Shown: positions 255 through 38,821 of the stretch, piece after piece
How the letters are laid out: each line of letters starts with the position of its first letter
How positions within the stretch are numbered: position 1 is the stretch's first letter
IMG/VR virus record: IMGVR_UViG_3300028864_000048
Coordinates: 1 to 40,654 of that record
Reading direction: 5' to 3' (one strand)
Origin: a virus
DNA: 40,654 nt
Translations under genes and position numbers: made by a program
Notes under the pieces: model-generated
Seen by the model: only the letters and a program-made list of their open reading frames with translations
The model's database searches: none
Told to the model about the DNA's origin: nothing

Positions 255-866
255 TTAATATTGCCAAATAAAACCGTAGACTGTTGGGCAATTTTTTCTA
301 GCACAAGCTGCTATTGTTTTTCTTCCATTAACTCCAAGAAATTGACAAGCTTCAGTAATAGTATTCCACTGCTTTAAGAAATGCATTTCTAAACTGTATT
401 GCTTCACTGGTTTAGATCGTAAAATTTTTACTTGTAACATTTTTTCTATAGTTAAATTATGTTTTATACCTATTTTACTATCAGAAATATGTTTTTTATG
501 TAGTTCTGAAAATATTCTTCCCTTTTGGGCATGTTTCATTTTTTGTATAGTTTCTTTAGCATGACTCCCATTTTTACCTCCTCCTTGTAAATTATATCCA
601 TTTAAATTACTTTTAAATAATTTAATAAAATGAATTTCTAATTTATCCAGTATAGTCTGTATAAATGGAGAATATTCTGAAAAAGAAACTAAAGTAATTA
701 CTTTAAAAGAGTCAAAACTATACTTTTGTAAGGCATGATATAAATGGACTTGTCCTTTACAATGTAATCTTTTGTACCTTTGAAATCTTACTTTAAGATT
801 TTTACTTTGTCCTATATACACTTTTCCAGAAGGACTAATTAATTTATAAATTCCCACATTTTTCAT
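255..866 (-). CDS. GIY-YIG homing endonuclease
   Basis: A 203-residue GIY-YIG nuclease. The N-terminus has GIYKL followed by KVYIGQS, the two signature strands of the fold, with a likely catalytic Arg in the following KVRFQRY segment. The middle (HAKETIQKM, HKKHISDSKIG) resembles NUMOD DNA-binding repeats, and the C-terminus (KQYSLEMHFLKQWNT) matches a NUMOD1-type helix-turn-helix, so this is a free-standing homing enzyme. I chose the ATG at 866 rather than 881 because a TAnnTTTG promoter at 887-894 would start transcription about where the upstream ATG lies. It sits next to the tRNA-like genes, a common landing place. The cleavage target cannot be told from the sequence. Confidence 0.87.
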   Translation of the reverse strand: MKNVGIYKLISPSGKVYIGQSKNLKVRFQRYKRLHCKGQVHLYHALQKYSFDSFKVITLVSFSEYSPFIQTILDKLEIHFIKLFKSNLNGYNLQGGGKNGSHAKETIQKMKHAQKGRIFSELHKKHISDSKIGIKHNLTIEKMLQVKILRSKPVKQYSLEMHFLKQWNTITEACQFLGVNGRKTIAACARKNCPTVYGFIWQY

Positions 867-886
867 ATCATATGTTTTCATTAAAA

Positions 887-29344: not shown

Positions 29345-29875
29345 ATGAGACAATTTGATGATTACTTTGCAGTTATATTAGGACATGAGGGAGGTTATGT
29401 AGACCATCCTAGTGATCCAGGTGGTAAAACCAATTATGGCATCTCACTTTTATTTTTAAAAGGATTAGTATTAGCAGAGGGCGATATAGATCATGATGGT
29501 GATATAGATGGTGATGATATCAAAGCACTTACAGTAAATGATTCCAAAGGACTTTATAAAAAGTTCTTTTGGGATCCTTTGCATTTTGAGGGACTTGTGA
29601 ATGAAGAACTTAAATTACATATATTTGATCATGGCGTAAATGCTGGTGTAAAAACTGGTGTAAAACTTCTACAAAGAATCCTAGGATTAACTGAGGATGG
29701 AACTATAGGACCTATTACTATTAAAACAACTAATAATTATCCTGGAGATATTATTGCAAAATATAAAGAAGCTAGACAAGGATATTATCTTTCAATCATA
29801 GCAAAAAATCCAAGACTAACAGTATTTCAAAAAGGCTGGTTCAACAGAATTAATACAACAATATTTAAAGTATGA
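29345..29875 (+). CDS. GH108-family phage lysozyme
   Basis: A 176-residue endolysin. N-terminal GHEGGYVDHPSDPGGKTNYG is the GH108 signature with catalytic Glu at about 15. Residues 50-62 (GDIDHDGDIDGDDIKAL) form a dockerin/EF-hand-like loop that may bind calcium, an insertion found in other GH108 enzymes. The end (LGLTEDGTIGPITIK) fits the associated peptidoglycan-binding part. It cuts the glycan strands of peptidoglycan. Overlaps the portal gene (ATGA). No signal peptide, so release via a holin is expected. Confidence 0.87.
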   Translation: MRQFDDYFAVILGHEGGYVDHPSDPGGKTNYGISLLFLKGLVLAEGDIDHDGDIDGDDIKALTVNDSKGLYKKFFWDPLHFEGLVNEELKLHIFDHGVNAGVKTGVKLLQRILGLTEDGTIGPITIKTTNNYPGDIIAKYKEARQGYYLSIIAKNPRLTVFQKGWFNRINTTIFKV

Positions 29876-32127
29876 ATATATTCAACTACAATTCCTCAGA
29901 ATTATTATCTGAGAAGGACAAACAATCTGAAGAATACTTAAAAAGTACTATAGATAAAGCTATTACTGAACTAGTTATGGATAAAGACTATTTAAGAAAA
30001 GCATATAACTACTATAATTGTATTAGAGATAAGGATCAGTTTCGTCATCTAGAAGAAAACTTTGGTATAGGAACACCAACTGCTATAGAGTTTGTACCTT
30101 TAGTTAAAAGACATGTGGATGCTTTAATAGGAGAACTACTATTATCAAAACTTAAACCTAAAATTACTTGTAAAGATTCTGAGACTCTTTCTAAAATAGA
30201 AATAGAAAGTCAAAAAGCAATATATCAAGCAGAATTAGGAAGACTAAAACAACAATTATCTGTAAATATTCAAGGTATATTTGGTCAAGGACCTCAAGAT
30301 CCTAATAATCCTACACCACCTCCAGAAGATAATGCTACAGAAGATGAGATTACTAAATTAAAAGAAGTTACTAAGAGAGATTTTGTTTCTGAATTTGAGA
30401 TTGCGGCTCAAAATATGATTGAGTTCTTCCTACAATCTAGAGAAATCAATTTAAATTTAAAAAGAGAGTATCTTTTTAAAGATTTACTTATTGGAGGGCA
30501 GTGTTACTATAAAACAGTTAAAAGAAAAGGATCTCCTATTCCAACTGTTGATGTATTAAGTCCCTTTGATGTATTCCCTGAAATTAATTCCAACTCTCCC
30601 TATATAAATAAATCTCGTAGAATAGTGTATGTAAAATACATGTCTAAAGAAGAAATTATTTTTGAATTTGGAGATAAAATGAGCAAGGATGAATTAGAAA
30701 TGTTACAAGGAGTAAACCTTGAAGCGTTTTCTCATAATGTTTATTATATACGAGCAGAATCGGGAGGTATTGTTTCTAATGTAGAAGCAACTATTCCAGG
30801 AACTTACCCTTATTATAATGATAATTTTTCAAGTAACAATAGGTATCCTGTATATTATGTGGAATGGTTAGAAAATAATAAGATTGAGGTAGGAGATGAA
30901 GAGTATTATCAATTAGATAGATATAAAGGAGCTAGAATTGGTTCAGAAATCTATTTAGATATGGGCAAAGATGAGGATGTAGTACGTAGTATGGAAGATC
31001 CTTATAGTTGTACATTGACTATTAATGGAATACAAATGACTTCACGTTCTGGTAAACCATTCTCCATGGTATTATCCACAGCTAACTTACAAGATAGATA
31101 TGATTTATTACATTGGTATCGTGATACTTTAATTGCTAATTCTGGTGTTAAAGGGGACTTTATGGATGTCTCTACTCTCCCAATGTTTCTAGGAACATCT
31201 CCAGAAGAAAGACTTTTAAAATATAAAGCTTATAAAAAATCTGGTACAGCATTATTTAATTCGGCTCAAGAAGGTAGAGGCCAACCAATGAACACTACAT
31301 TTGCTGGATTTGATGACACTGTTTCAGGACAATCTATTCAGGCTATACAATTAGCTATAACTCAAACAGAAGATATATGTTCAGCTATTACCGGAGTCTT
31401 TAGAGAAAAACTTGGTGATATAGAACAAAGAGATGCTGTAACAAATGTTGCAGTAGGTATGAAAAATTCTGCAGTTATTACTAAGCAATACTTTAATACA
31501 TTAGATGGAGTTGTAAAAGAACTTCTTACAGATATGTTGAATGTGGCTAAAAAATCTTTAAAGGGAGAATTTAAAGGCTCTTTAATATTAGGTTCTCGTC
31601 TCTCTAAAATTTTTACAGTGCTTCCAGAACACTTATCTTTTACTGATCATGATATCCATATTGGAGATAGTGAACAAATTACAAGAGATATAGAGTTAAT
31701 TAAGAGTATGACTATGGAACTAATGAAAGGTGGTTTAGTACAACCTGAACTTCTCTTTGAAACTATTACTACAGAGAGTTTAACTGAATTTAAAGAGTCT
31801 GGTCTTAATGCTATTAAGAAACAAAAAGAAGAACAAGGTGTTACACAACAACTTCAACAACAAGTTGCACAACAAACACAACAACTGAAAGAAGCTCAAA
31901 GTCAAATTCAACAACTTACTACTAAACTTCAAAGTCAAGATCAAACAGACATTCAAGTTAAGCAAGGAGAATTGCAAATGAAGACTGAACAAGGGGCTAC
32001 TAAACTTAAAGATGATAGAGAATACAAAACTAGAGAACTTGCTTTAAAAGAAAAACAAATTCAAGCAGAGGTTCTACAATTAGGAGATAGTAATAATAAA
32101 AATGATGAAATTAAAAATATAGCATGA
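29872..32127 (+). CDS. Portal protein
   Basis: A 751-residue protein, the second large structural protein downstream of TerL; length and sequence pattern (PLVKRHVDALIGELLLSKL; EEIIFEFGDKMSK; and a Gln-rich coiled coil at the end, TQQLQQQVAQQTQQLKEAQ) fit crAss-like portals. It forms the ring through which DNA enters and to which the tail attaches; the C-terminal coiled coil probably extends into the capsid. Translation is coupled to the lysozyme and to the next gene (ATGA overlaps on both sides). Confidence 0.85.
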   Translation: MNIFNYNSSELLSEKDKQSEEYLKSTIDKAITELVMDKDYLRKAYNYYNCIRDKDQFRHLEENFGIGTPTAIEFVPLVKRHVDALIGELLLSKLKPKITCKDSETLSKIEIESQKAIYQAELGRLKQQLSVNIQGIFGQGPQDPNNPTPPPEDNATEDEITKLKEVTKRDFVSEFEIAAQNMIEFFLQSREINLNLKREYLFKDLLIGGQCYYKTVKRKGSPIPTVDVLSPFDVFPEINSNSPYINKSRRIVYVKYMSKEEIIFEFGDKMSKDELEMLQGVNLEAFSHNVYYIRAESGGIVSNVEATIPGTYPYYNDNFSSNNRYPVYYVEWLENNKIEVGDEEYYQLDRYKGARIGSEIYLDMGKDEDVVRSMEDPYSCTLTINGIQMTSRSGKPFSMVLSTANLQDRYDLLHWYRDTLIANSGVKGDFMDVSTLPMFLGTSPEERLLKYKAYKKSGTALFNSAQEGRGQPMNTTFAGFDDTVSGQSIQAIQLAITQTEDICSAITGVFREKLGDIEQRDAVTNVAVGMKNSAVITKQYFNTLDGVVKELLTDMLNVAKKSLKGEFKGSLILGSRLSKIFTVLPEHLSFTDHDIHIGDSEQITRDIELIKSMTMELMKGGLVQPELLFETITTESLTEFKESGLNAIKKQKEEQGVTQQLQQQVAQQTQQLKEAQSQIQQLTTKLQSQDQTDIQVKQGELQMKTEQGATKLKDDREYKTRELALKEKQIQAEVLQLGDSNNKNDEIKNIA

Positions 32128-32705: not shown

Positions 32706-32865
32706 ACTACAACTTAAATTAATTATGAGTTTCATTAAATTATTAGAATCTTATGAGGTGGGTAATCCCCTACCTTATAAGGATCTAAAGTTCTCAATAG
32801 AAACTTTTGAGATGAATTTACTCTCACCACAAAAATATTACGAACTCATATGGGACAACCTATAA
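32698..32865 (+). CDS. Small helical protein (55 aa)
   Basis: MNELQLKLIMSFIKLLESYE and further to YYELIWDNL. Starts by overlapping the previous stop and ends 16 bases inside the next gene, filling an otherwise empty gap; no other frame is open there. Function unknown. Confidence 0.6.
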   Translation: MNELQLKLIMSFIKLLESYEVGNPLPYKDLKFSIETFEMNLLSPQKYYELIWDNL

Positions 32866-33929
32866 TTTTAAATGGAGAGATAATTACCCAAGATGAAAAT
32901 ACTCCTACTAGAAATACTGATACTGTACTCATAGTACCTACTGCAATAAATGTATCTCCTTCTCATTTTGATGATCCTATCATCATTTATGAAGATAATA
33001 TATCTCCAATTGATTTTGCTGCAAAAGAAATAGTGTTAATTCCGAGGCAGACTTCTCCGATATTAAATATAGCTATACAAGATATAATTAACTGGAATTT
33101 ATCATATAGTTGGGGTGATCACTCAGGTTTATACAAACCTTTATCTTATGTACCTACATGGAGTGAAATATTATTAAAACCTACTTTTGCTACTGTAGCA
33201 ACTTCAGGAAGCTACGCAGATTTACTCAACAAACCAGCTTTATTTTCAGGCAATTATTCTGATTTAATAAATAAACCATCAATATTTGATGGAAATTATA
33301 ATTCTTTAAGTAATAAACCTTCTTTATTTGATGGTACTTGGACATCATTGAATGGTAAACCTACATCATTAAGTTCATTTACAAATGATCCTGGTTTTAT
33401 TACAACCTTTATTGAAACTGATCCTACTGTACCATCATGGGTTAAATCTATTACTCAATCTTCAATTACTGCTTGGGATGGAGCTGTTAATAGTGCACAT
33501 GCTCATGCAAATAAAAGTGTGTTGGATGGTATTTCATCCTCTGATATTATTAATTGGAATTCTAAACAACCGGCTGGTTCTTATCTAACTTCTTTTGCTG
33601 GACTTATTGAGGAAATAGCATTTGAATTTAGAGATATAACTCCAGGAGTTGCACAGATTTATATCTTAGATATTAAAGCATCTTTTGGTTATACTATAGA
33701 AGCATTAATTGCAGAAACAGATACAGGTACTTTAACCGGAGTTTCCATAAAAATAGATTCAACTTCAGTAACTTCACTTTCTTCTGTCACAATTACAACT
33801 ATAACAGAAACTACAAGTACAGCATTAAAAACTGTTGTCACTGGTAATCAAATTACTATTAATACTTCTACAGGATTTACAGGTGCACCAACTACTTTAC
33901 GAGGTAAACTTAAACTTATAAGAACATGA
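32850..33929 (+). CDS. Fibre-like protein with NKP repeats
   Basis: A 359-residue protein. Residues about 125-180 hold four imperfect repeats of the form L-x-N-K-P-x-x-F-x-G-x-Y (LLNKPALFSGNYSDLINKPS, SLSNKPSLFDGTW), typical of trimeric fibres, with an SYSWGDHSGLYKP motif before it. C-terminal Ser/Thr-rich beta domain. In ΦcrAss001 the gene after the portal encodes a head fibre, so a head-fibre role is plausible. Overlaps the next gene (ATGA). Confidence 0.65.
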   Translation: MGQPIILNGEIITQDENTPTRNTDTVLIVPTAINVSPSHFDDPIIIYEDNISPIDFAAKEIVLIPRQTSPILNIAIQDIINWNLSYSWGDHSGLYKPLSYVPTWSEILLKPTFATVATSGSYADLLNKPALFSGNYSDLINKPSIFDGNYNSLSNKPSLFDGTWTSLNGKPTSLSSFTNDPGFITTFIETDPTVPSWVKSITQSSITAWDGAVNSAHAHANKSVLDGISSSDIINWNSKQPAGSYLTSFAGLIEEIAFEFRDITPGVAQIYILDIKASFGYTIEALIAETDTGTLTGVSIKIDSTSVTSLSSVTITTITETTSTALKTVVTGNQITINTSTGFTGAPTTLRGKLKLIRT

Positions 33930-35302
33930 GATTACTTTATATAATGGCTAAAAAAATAATAGGTGGTTATGGAAGACTTTATAATTGGTTCTGTACGCAA
34001 CCGCAAACGAAGGTTAAGTATGGGTATTTGTATAATTGGTATGCGGCAACTGATGTAAGGGATATCACGGCGAGTAATGCTCATGTTCCAAGTCGTACAG
34101 AGTGGGAAACTCTTTTAAATTACGTTGACGTCTATGATGCCGACGGTGGATATTGGCCGAACGCGGGTGGAGAGCTTAAAGAAGTTGGATTAACTCATTG
34201 GAACAATCCTAATACAGGAGTAACTAATCAATATGGGTTTAGTTCTCGTGGGTCTGGAGATAGGTCTGAATGGTCAGATATAGAATGGGGTTTTGGAGGC
34301 AAGAATGAATGGTCTAATTATATCGCATTAGAAATGTACGATGCGACCAATTCTTACGGGTATGGCTTCTCCAATAATTCTACGTGGGGTCTATTACAAC
34401 CTATTGATATAAAAATGGGAAACGCCATTCGCCTAATAGTTGATTCCCCTACTGAAATAAACGGAAATTCAGCTATTTACGTTGGCAACAACCTTCGACG
34501 TTATAAATGCTGTCTAATCAATGGGATATGGTACACTGCCGAGAACCTTGCCGAAACAAAATATCGCAATGGTGATTTAATCCCCAAAGTAACCGACAAT
34601 GCAGCTTGGAGTGCATTAACAACAGGTGGTTATTGCGCCTATAACAATGACGAGGCAAACGCATTTGAAACGGCAAGTATCGCACCTGTGGGATTTCACA
34701 TTGCAAACGTAATTTATGATTTTCCAGTTGTTTCTGAGTGGATGGACTTAATACACGCAATTGAGCCGACTGGGACAGGGGCGGTAAATACGGCGGGTGG
34801 CAAACTAAAAGAGGTGGGTTTAACTCATTGGGATAGTCCAAATACAGGAGCAACAAATGAGGTTTACTTCAATGCGGTAGGTTCAGGGTATAGGCTTATG
34901 GATGGGTTATTTTCATCATTAAAACTTTATTCTATATTTTGGAGCAGAGGGGAATATTGGGCGGATTTAAACTACGCACCCGCCGCACTATTATACCACA
35001 ACGATGCTACAATGGCGGCAACAGACGATACTAACGGGTATGAAATAGACAAGCGAATAGGTGCATCACTCCGAATGATTAAGGATGATTCGGAGTGGAC
35101 TGCCGGAGATACGGTAACCGATGCAGATGGGAATGTTTATCCTTTGGTTAAAATTGGAACTCAGGTATGGACTGCATTGAATTGGAAATGCACCAAATTA
35201 AATGATGGAACACCAATTCCAAATGTCACAGATAATACTACATGGGCAGCAATGACTACTATGGCTCAATGTATTTACAATAATGATATTAAAAATTTAT
35301 AG
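33926..35302 (+). CDS. Fibre or receptor-binding protein with permuted FISUMP domains
   Basis: A 458-residue protein with two full copies plus parts of the FISUMP (Fib_succ_major) C-type-lectin-like domain: YGYLYNWYAATDV near 30-42 and GELKEVGLTHW (second half); then a complete domain about 180-385 (IWYTAENLAETKYRNGDLIP, GGKLKEVGLTHW, IGASLRMIKDD); and the first half of a third (VYPLVKIGTQVWTALNWK, IPNVTDN) ending abruptly in IYNNDIKNL. DNA is about half G+C (30 of 60 bases at 34141-34200), unlike neighbours, so acquired. Start at 33926 (ATGA overlap); ATG 33944 is an alternative. Likely binds sugars or receptors on the host. Confidence 0.75.
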   Translation: MRLLYIMAKKIIGGYGRLYNWFCTQPQTKVKYGYLYNWYAATDVRDITASNAHVPSRTEWETLLNYVDVYDADGGYWPNAGGELKEVGLTHWNNPNTGVTNQYGFSSRGSGDRSEWSDIEWGFGGKNEWSNYIALEMYDATNSYGYGFSNNSTWGLLQPIDIKMGNAIRLIVDSPTEINGNSAIYVGNNLRRYKCCLINGIWYTAENLAETKYRNGDLIPKVTDNAAWSALTTGGYCAYNNDEANAFETASIAPVGFHIANVIYDFPVVSEWMDLIHAIEPTGTGAVNTAGGKLKEVGLTHWDSPNTGATNEVYFNAVGSGYRLMDGLFSSLKLYSIFWSRGEYWADLNYAPAALLYHNDATMAATDDTNGYEIDKRIGASLRMIKDDSEWTAGDTVTDADGNVYPLVKIGTQVWTALNWKCTKLNDGTPIPNVTDNTTWAAMTTMAQCIYNNDIKNL

Positions 35303-35381: not shown

Positions 35382-35623
35382 ATGGAAACTCTTTTAATCA
35401 ACGCTTTAACATTACCCAATATATTAAATATTGGAAATATACTTCAAGTTAATTCTGATTGGAATGCAACTTCTGGTCTGCACAAATTTTAAATAAACCT
35501 ATTATTTCTACAAAGACTTCACAATTAACGAATGATTCAGGATTTATAACAAAAGATCAATGTAAATGTAGTTGCAAATGTTGTAACTCCGAACATATAA
35601 CAAATGATTTAATACCAACTTAA
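35382..35623 (+). pseudogene. Fibre-type gene broken by a one-base deletion
   Basis: ATG 35382 opens METLLINALTLPNILNIGN and continues to SDWNATSG, then stops at 35490-35492. In the -1 frame from 35477, SAQILNKPIISTKTSQLT and NDSGFITK follow, typical fibre repeats, then DQCKCSCKCC and a stop at 35621-35623. A T missing in GGT-TCT (GGTCTGCA at 35475-35482) restores one 80-residue gene. No slippery site seen. Confidence 0.65.
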
Positions 35624-37396: not shown

Positions 37397-38821
37397 ATGG
37401 CTTTAGTAACAAATTTTACGAGTCAACAGTCCTCAATGGGACAGACTAAAACGTACGAAGATTTCGGAAAGTTTTTGGGGTTACGCCCACATAGACTTGG
37501 TATCGTCTCAAAAATGTACCCTAATTTAACAGCATCATTCTTAACTGAATCTCTGTTGAATGTTTATTACAATGAAAACAAAGCTTCTAAATTTCAAAGC
37601 ATTGATGCAATGGTATTTGAATGGGAGATTGATGTTAATTTCATTAAACGTGTAGAATTCGCAGCTGTTCCAGTTGGTGTTGGTGCTAATGGTGCCGATA
37701 TTATTATGGCCTTCAAAGAAAGATACTACGAAAAATATGATACCTTCCGTATTGAAGGATCTCGTCAACAGTGTTTTGTAAAAAGTTCTCCAATTCGTAG
37801 ATCTGATAATTACTGGGAAGTAATTGTTCAATTGATTGATGCAGATTTCTCTAGTATCTTAGATACAACTGCAACACAAGTAGGTTCTACTACTCGTTGG
37901 ATCTCTAATTATCACCCTGAACTTTCAGAAGAAGGTTTTACAAAATATCAAAGCAACATTGAACGTCATAGAAATCACATCTCTCTTCATAGAAATGATG
38001 TATCTTTCTCTAGTCAGTTCGCAGCTCTAGAAGATGTATTTATTTCAATTGGTCAACCTGATGGTGCCAATAATGGTAACTTCAAAGAGGTTGTTTATAA
38101 GATGAAGAAAAAAGAACAGGAATGTCTTGAATCATTCATGTTGGCTAGAAACCAAGGATTACTTTTTGGTAAATCTAACTTTGACAAGAATGGTAAATGT
38201 ACTATTACTGATCCTAAAACTGGTCGTGCAATCCCAATGGGAGATGGTCTTATTGCTCAAGTTGAAAGATATGCAAATATCTATGCTTATGCTAGATTAA
38301 CTATCAACGCTTTCGATACTATGATCGAAACAATGCGTGAACGTGCAAAAGAACCAACTGGTAACCAATGGGTATTCGTTTGTAATGAAAAAATGTGGTC
38401 ACAAATCCAAAGAACTCTAAGAGAATATCTTAAAGACTGGAAAACAAATGGTGTATTCTTCTATTCGAAGAAAGCTGGTGGTATGGTAGAAGTAGGGGCA
38501 ACCTTCGATACTTATAACTTCGGTGGTAACCAATTAACTTTCCATGTTGATAGAAGTTTAACTTATGAGTACCCTGACAAAGGATATGGAATTTGTGTTG
38601 ACTTAACTTCAGATGCTTCTACAGGAACTCCTGCAGCTCAGATGTTCACACTTAAGGGTGGTGAATTCATCAGAGGCGTACTAAAAGGAGTTGGTGGTAT
38701 GGATGGTGTAACTTCAGGTGATGTAAATACTTCTGTAGCAGGTAGTAAGATAATTCATATGGGTTATGCAGGGATAGGACTCTACAACCCGTATAGAAGT
38801 TTCATTATGAAAGAGCAGTAA
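37397..38821 (+). CDS. Major capsid protein
   Basis: A 474-residue protein, close to the ~490 of crAss-like MCPs. Recognisable pieces: LGLRPHRLGIVSKMYPN, VEFAAVPVGVG, RWISNYHPELSEEGF and YRNHISLHR-like ERHRNHISLH, plus a C-terminal NPYRSFIMKEQ. HK97 fold expected. Highest codon regularity in the window, fitting abundant product. Preceded by scaffold and followed by a strong terminator and then the next unit. Confidence 0.87.
   Translation: MALVTNFTSQQSSMGQTKTYEDFGKFLGLRPHRLGIVSKMYPNLTASFLTESLLNVYYNENKASKFQSIDAMVFEWEIDVNFIKRVEFAAVPVGVGANGADIIMAFKERYYEKYDTFRIEGSRQQCFVKSSPIRRSDNYWEVIVQLIDADFSSILDTTATQVGSTTRWISNYHPELSEEGFTKYQSNIERHRNHISLHRNDVSFSSQFAALEDVFISIGQPDGANNGNFKEVVYKMKKKEQECLESFMLARNQGLLFGKSNFDKNGKCTITDPKTGRAIPMGDGLIAQVERYANIYAYARLTINAFDTMIETMRERAKEPTGNQWVFVCNEKMWSQIQRTLREYLKDWKTNGVFFYSKKAGGMVEVGATFDTYNFGGNQLTFHVDRSLTYEYPDKGYGICVDLTSDASTGTPAAQMFTLKGGEFIRGVLKGVGGMDGVTSGDVNTSVAGSKIIHMGYAGIGLYNPYRSFIMKEQ

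What the first reader, a model, noticed from the sequence alone, without database searches (positions are those of the whole stretch)
33926..35302. Permuted tandem FISUMP (lectin-like) fibre of foreign composition
Half domain, full domain, half domain, with repeated KEVGLTHW and YGYLYNW pieces, and base composition near 50 percent G+C versus about 30 around it. FISUMP is similar in fold to C-type lectins used in variable phage tail proteins. Placed between portal and MCP among head-fibre-like genes.
Basis: partly seen in the sequence, partly recalled or inferred. Interest (0 to 1): 0.6.

Follow-up and report, generated by a model that had tools for sequence, protein, structure and literature searches.

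The report
Circularly permuted lectin-like phage fibre tip
A crAss-like phage carries, at the end of a fibre, a swappable lectin-like adhesin whose domain has been cut and rejoined in a different order from the bacterial version; the same rearranged adhesin, with a matching socket on the fibre, is shared by unrelated phages and is probably how they exchange host-recognition tips.

Summary
The ORF 33926-35302 is real: 458 aa, Pfam FISUMP (PF09603, E 4e-28) matched as C-half, full domain, N-half. G+C is 41%, not 50%, but still above codon-usage expectation (z about 6). The order is not a broken gene. Nine other viral contigs carry relatives, six of them intact with this architecture. With one query, phage proteins are overwhelmingly C-half-first and bacterial proteins N-half-first (units: viral 79 CN/12 NC; genomes 2 CN/118 NC). 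One C-N unit is predicted as a compact domain (pLDDT 96, pTM 0.92). So phages use a circularly permuted FISUMP domain, twice in tandem here.

The gene overlaps the stop codon of a chimeric fibre gene. That fibre's shaft matches sister crassviruses, but its last 113 aa form an 'adaptor' that, in 13 distinct phages, is always followed at 1- or 4-nt overlap by a tip gene starting with a short similar peptide: 11 permuted FISUMP, 2 leucine-rich-repeat tips. Sister phages with 92-93% identical capsid protein have other fibres here.

No reverse transcriptase occurs in 67 records, and strain pairs show no excess change in the tip, so a diversity-generating retroelement is not supported. Best reading: an exchangeable adhesin plugged onto a fibre end.

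The parts
32850..33929 (+). Fibre gene (359 aa); shaft part (aa ~70-248) homologous to the fibre at the same locus of sister crassviruses
   Evidence: phmmer match aa 70-134 and 148-248 to the 868-870 aa fibre of L014-L017
33588..33926 (+). C-terminal 'adaptor' (socket) domain of the fibre, aa 247-359, shared with fibre genes directly upstream of tip genes in unrelated phages
   Evidence: phmmer/HMM matches in L059, L008, L083, L006, L085; 7 further distinct loci found by the adaptor sequence alone
33926..35302 (+). Tandem circularly permuted FISUMP tip adhesin, 458 aa, starts within the fibre stop codon (ATGA overlap)
   Evidence: PF09603 E 4.2e-28; overlap; relatives with the same architecture
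33926..33967 (+). N-terminal 'plug' peptide MRLLYIMAKKIIGG, proposed to dock in the adaptor (inference)
   Evidence: similar M-(G/R)-x-(I/L)-x-Y start in most adaptor-coupled tips, both FISUMP and LRR
34016..34441 (+). Permuted unit 1, C-half (FISUMP profile ~43-187)
34493..34651 (+). Permuted unit 1, N-half (FISUMP profile 1-46); most conserved part of the protein
   Evidence: unit 34007-34654 is predicted with pLDDT 96.3, pTM 0.92
34652..35083 (+). Permuted unit 2, C-half
35129..35302 (+). Permuted unit 2, N-half, ends the protein (..YNNDIKNL*)
34262..34414 (+). Divergent tip segment of unit 1 (proposed binding face)
   Evidence: mean majority fraction 0.29 against 0.53-0.73 in the rest of the unit
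34892..35053 (+). Divergent tip segment of unit 2 (proposed binding face)
   Evidence: mean majority fraction 0.28

Best explanation
The ORF encodes a receptor-binding tip protein made of two tandem, circularly permuted FISUMP (C-type-lectin-like) domains. It is translated in overlap with the fibre gene before it and docks, probably through its N-terminal peptide, on a socket domain at the fibre's C-terminus. The conserved N-halves and scaffold hold the fold, while the divergent loops of each C-half bind a ligand, most likely a surface glycan or protein of a Bacteroidota host. Socket and tip are shared between unrelated phages, so host recognition is changed by exchanging the tip and not by a retroelement. 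Shown by computation: permuted architecture, its phage bias, autonomous predicted fold, socket-tip gene linkage, segment swap in sister phages. Inferred: docking through the N-terminal peptide, ligand binding, host-range role.
For: Permutation: Pfam order 43-159, 3-187, 1-46; the same order in relatives at 45-54% identity; one query in two collections gives viral CN 57 and CNCN 21 against NC 11 ORFs, and genomes NC 91 against CN 2, or 79/12 against 2/118 units. A single C-N unit is predicted as one compact domain, pLDDT 96.3, pTM 0.92, 70 sequences; its best structural matches are all C-type-lectin-like, and most venom lectins align from their residue ~16-17 on, i.e. without the first strand. 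Tip position: in 38 of 61 complete permuted ORFs the last N-half ends within 12 aa of the C-terminus, including long fibres. Socket-tip pairing: 13 of 13 adaptor genes overlap the next gene by 1 or 4 nt; of 7 distinct loci found by adaptor sequence alone, 5 have a permuted FISUMP tip and 2 an LRR-type tip. Exchange: sister phages share 73-76% identical DNA on both sides but other fibres in between; fibre chimeric at aa ~247; relatives sit in crassviruses (PF23898 present) and in a phage with a tape-measure gene.
Against: No experiment. No coordinates were available, so contacts between C- and N-half are inferred from pTM and from the existence of single-unit proteins. Fold matches to the PDB are weak (Z about 5 or less, no Foldseek E below 0.13). 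No ligand-binding residues are known. Composition changes at the tip ORF and not at the adaptor junction, so adaptor and tip may have arrived separately. Adaptor members L006 and L085 were recruited at lower similarity.
Confidence: 0.72

Rival explanations
1. Target of a diversity-generating retroelement: the lectin-like tips are mutated at template adenines by a reverse transcriptase encoded outside the window.
For: FISUMP and DUF1566 domains are known retroelement targets, including in Bacteroides phages (PMC4159848, PMC8143477); tips are divergent between relatives.
Against: No RVT_1 match in 67 viral records including a 115-kb sister record; near-identical permuted strain pairs show 1 change in all C-halves together, and in L080/L102 none in 381 nt while flanks differ by 8%. 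In the known phage case the variable repeat is at the 3' end of the gene; here the permutation puts a conserved N-half there.
Confidence: 0.04
2. The half-full-half pattern is accidental: a canonical N-C FISUMP array that lost its ends, i.e. a decaying or mis-assembled gene.
For: A permuted array could arise from an N-C tandem by loss of its ends; the following small reading frame (35383-35623) looks disrupted.
Against: The pattern is conserved over full length at 45-54% identity in other phages, and single C-N proteins of 210-250 aa are common; frame open, scaffold conserved.
Confidence: 0.03
3. The protein is not a host-receptor-binding tip but a fibre assembly chaperone, a capsid decoration without binding role, or binds something other than the host (for example mucus or particles).
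For: Position between portal and capsid genes, where PhicrAss001 encodes head fibres of unproven ligand (PMC10172136); T4 gp38 encoded after the fibre gene is an assembly factor (PMC6851490).
Against: A chaperone would not need two lectin-like domains with divergent loops; the same unit is fused to the C-terminus of long fibres in other phages; a bacterial permuted relative is a surface lipoprotein (L130).
Confidence: 0.2

Closest known systems
FISUMP / Fib_succ_major domain (PF09603)
   Same: Sequence family met well above the cut-off; same halves, same motifs
   Different: Order of the halves is circularly permuted, often tandem or terminal in phage fibres; bacterial members sampled here are almost all N-half first
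gp38 adhesins of T2/S16-type phages (PMC6851490)
   Same: Separate tip protein capping the fibre end, with an N-terminal attachment part and divergent binding loops on a conserved frame
   Different: Different fold (polyglycine sandwich), no sequence relation found; attachment there by a helical bundle, here by a short peptide (proposed)
DGR variable proteins with C-type-lectin fold (Mtd, TvpA; Bacuni phage targets, PMC8143477)
   Same: C-type-lectin-like domain linked to host recognition; Fib_succ_major/DUF1566 motifs
   Different: No reverse transcriptase found; variable part is internal, not at the 3' end; no strain-level hypervariation
Crassvirus head fibres gp21/gp29 of PhicrAss001 (PMC10172136)
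   Same: Fibre genes in the portal-to-capsid interval; modular C-terminal domains
   Different: No FISUMP domain described there; whether the window's fibre sits on head or tail is unknown

Membership tests
FISUMP (PF09603) domain family | Match above Pfam's gathering score | tested here: met
   99.3 bits against 33.9
FISUMP (PF09603) domain family | Both parts of the domain present | tested here: met
   N-half twice and C-half twice, but in permuted order
C-type-lectin-like fold | Structural match to solved C-type-lectin-like domains | tested here: inconclusive
   Top 7 rows all C-type-lectin-like (Bd2740, Lcl, snake-venom lectins), but Z 3.3-5.1, 78-89 residues
Diversity-generating retroelement target | Reverse transcriptase in the same genome | tested here: inconclusive
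   None in 67 records, but most records, the window's included, may be fragments
Diversity-generating retroelement target | Excess of A-specific substitutions between close strains | tested here: not met
   No excess in near-identical pairs of permuted homologues; no close strain of the window's own gene was available
gp38-type fibre tip adhesin (works like) | Separate gene directly after the fibre gene, with a conserved partner on the fibre C-terminus | tested here: met
   13 of 13 overlapping gene pairs; physical attachment not testable here
gp38-type fibre tip adhesin (homology) | Homology to a gp38 family | tested here: not met
   No Pfam family other than Fib_succ_major even at E 10
Crassvirales (the phage) | Crassvirus major capsid protein | tested here: met
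   PF23898 54.7 bits against 27

The most novel reading that the evidence does not exclude
Phages, probably of Bacteroidota, share a plug-and-socket system for fibre tips: a socket domain at the fibre C-terminus and a short N-terminal plug peptide let them exchange whole adhesin bodies, either a phage-typical circularly permuted lectin-like domain or a leucine-rich-repeat protein, across crassviruses and long-tailed phages.
Probability: 0.5. Interest if true: 0.72.

Novelty: new variant of a known kind. Interest (0 to 1): 0.6.

Why it matters
Crassviruses are the most abundant viruses of the human gut (PMC10172136), yet their receptor-binding proteins are poorly known. A recognisable adaptor plus tip gives a sequence signature for such proteins in many uncultured phages, makes the docking directly testable with two small proteins, and would be a rare natural circular permutation of a lectin-like fold tied to one way of life. 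It also argues that tip exchange, not only retroelement mutagenesis, diversifies FISUMP adhesins.

Tried and rejected
Retroelement: rejected as above. Phage GenBank collection: only one weak relative (Rhodobacteraceae phage, 37%), so close named phages are lacking. PDB by sequence: nothing. Foldseek against PDB: no match below E 0.1 for either model; BFVD gave only two named FISUMP phage proteins and one unnamed entry as strong hits. The whole-tandem model had pTM 0.58, so relative placement of the two units is not interpreted. Adaptor search with all six members or with the window copy alone found nothing usable; closer subsets worked. Single origin of the permutation: labels cluster strongly on the trees (3 changes against 64 shuffled; 5 against 23) but inner branches are weak, so one origin is possible, not shown. 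Literature: the word FISUMP has no hit, and the Fib_succ_major papers touching phages concern retroelements; no paper on a permuted form was found in the open-access library, which does not prove absence.

Full report
Observation. The window is a 40,654-nt viral record (IMG/VR) of a crAss-like phage: portal at 29872-32127 (PHROG 6547, E 5e-37) and major capsid protein at 37397-38821 (PF23898, E 8e-15). The reported ORF is exactly 33926-35302, 458 aa. Pfam finds only Fib_succ_major (FISUMP), E 4e-28. Three stretches match: profile 43-159, then 3-187, then 1-46. The G+C claim is not: 40.7% against about 31% in the flanks; with the window's own codon usage 36.8% would be expected for this protein, and GC3 is 0.33 against 0.22 expected (z about 6).

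A conserved architecture. Nine viral contigs hold relatives; six of the loci (L004, L005, L007, L008, L009, L010; L007 and L009 are alike) are intact and of the same C-N-C-N architecture at 45-54% identity, L006 is interrupted by a frame change, L011 is more distant (26%) and L012 is a fragment. An alignment of eight was used to search viral contigs and bacterial genomes with nearly the same patterns. Separate profiles for the N-half (about profile 1-46) and the C-half (about 47-187) were scanned over all reading frames. Viral frames read CN (57), CNCN (21), CNC (4) and similar, with NC 11; genome frames read NC (91), NCNC (7), NCNCNC (3), with CN 2. Counted as units the table is viral 79 CN and 12 NC, genomes 2 CN and 118 NC. 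Of the two CN cases in genomes, one lies among phage portal- and capsid-like genes (L131) and one is in a Bacteroidales lipoprotein next to housekeeping genes (L130). Both scans kept only the best 80 loci, but the same query produced opposite orders in the two collections, so ranking alone cannot explain it. Many phage proteins are a single C-N unit of about 210-250 aa, so C-N is the self-standing unit and the window protein is two of them, [C-N][C-N].

Structure. The window's first C-N unit (34007-34654, 216 aa) with 69 relatives is predicted at pLDDT 96.3 and pTM 0.92, five models agreeing, as expected for a circular permutation with one compact core. The whole tandem has pLDDT 82 and pTM 0.58 with 15 sequences, so the arrangement of the two units is open. 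Structural matches are weak but consistent: for the unit, the first seven rows are all C-type-lectin-like domains (Bd2740 Z 5.1, Legionella Lcl Z 4.7, five snake-venom lectins Z 3.3-4.0), and several venom chains align from residue 16 or 17 to their end, i.e. without the first strand. That is what a permuted lectin-like domain would give; it is an inference, because coordinates were not at hand.

Neighbour and socket. The fibre gene 32850-33929 ends inside the tip gene's start (ATGA). Its aa 70-248 match the fibre at the same place in sister phages L014-L017; its aa 246-359 instead match the C-termini of fibres in L059, L008 and L083, and with a profile also L006 and L085. In all of these the next gene is a permuted FISUMP gene. 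To test this without circularity the adaptor sequence alone was searched: ten loci, of which two were known and two are near-identical, leaving seven new distinct ones. Five have a permuted FISUMP gene next; two have another body: a BspA-type leucine-rich-repeat protein in L214 (E 1e-48) and a PKD/LRR-like protein in L208 (weak, below cut-off). In all 13 pairs the stop of the adaptor gene overlaps the start of the tip gene by 4 nt (ATGA) or 1 nt (TAATG), and most tips begin with a similar short peptide (MRLLYI, MRRLLYI, MGRILYI, MGRNFYI, MRILHH, MSSLIYI ...), whatever follows. I propose that this peptide is the plug for the adaptor socket; this is inference.

Exchange. Five records with 92-93% identical capsid protein (L013-L017) align with the window at 73-76% DNA identity on both sides, but the stretch about 32.9-36.2 kb is replaced by other, longer fibres without FISUMP. 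A more distant crassvirus (L025, capsid 52% identical) again holds a permuted FISUMP at this place, readable when TGA is read as W. Permuted FISUMP genes also occur beside a tape-measure gene (L010) and in at least four further records with a crassvirus capsid gene (L006, L061, L083, L104). So this locus is a hotspot for fibre exchange, and the tip is shared across phage types. The composition step lies at the tip gene and not at the adaptor (adaptor GC3 0.06), so adaptor and tip may have been acquired at different times.

Retroelement test. No RVT_1 match in 17 plus 50 records. In near-identical pairs of permuted homologues the C-halves hold one substitution in total; in L080/L102 they hold none although the flanks differ at 8%, which looks like recent sharing of the tip. 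In the Bacuni phages, whose retroelement targets carry Fib_succ_major motifs, the variable repeat is at the gene's 3' end (PMC8143477); here a conserved N-half is there.

Verdict. A real, conserved and, as far as the open-access library shows, undescribed variant of a known domain family: a circularly permuted, tandem FISUMP fibre tip, paired with a fibre adaptor. It works most like the gp38 tip adhesins of T2/S16-type phages (PMC6851490) but no homology to them was found. Head or tail location is not decided: PhicrAss001 has head fibres encoded in this interval (PMC10172136), while the same tip in L010 lies among tail genes.

Noticed in passing
window 35383-35623: A short fibre-like reading frame (METLLINALTLPNILN...) stops early and a fibre-like continuation lies in another frame: a disrupted gene or an assembly error.
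   Followed up: no
L025 6889-7992: A crAss-like relative has a permuted FISUMP protein between fibre and capsid genes that is open only if TGA is read as an amino acid; six TGA codons; read as W it matches the family (E 6e-26).
   Followed up: partly
L130 6354-7778: A Bacteroidales chromosomal lipoprotein ends in a permuted (phage-type) FISUMP unit: possible transfer from phage to host surface.
   Followed up: partly
L080 and L102: FISUMP C-half identical in two records whose flanking DNA differs by 8%: likely recent exchange of the tip gene.
   Followed up: partly
L005, L007, L010, L004, L051: Tips without the adaptor found here begin with other conserved peptides (MKILRGVSGN.LT..SGG.R.LLYV; NFFWSHTLLKA), suggesting further plug/socket types.
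   Followed up: no
window 255-881: ORF on the minus strand that reads like a GIY-YIG homing endonuclease; similar-looking small endonuclease-like ORFs occur elsewhere in the left half.
   Followed up: no
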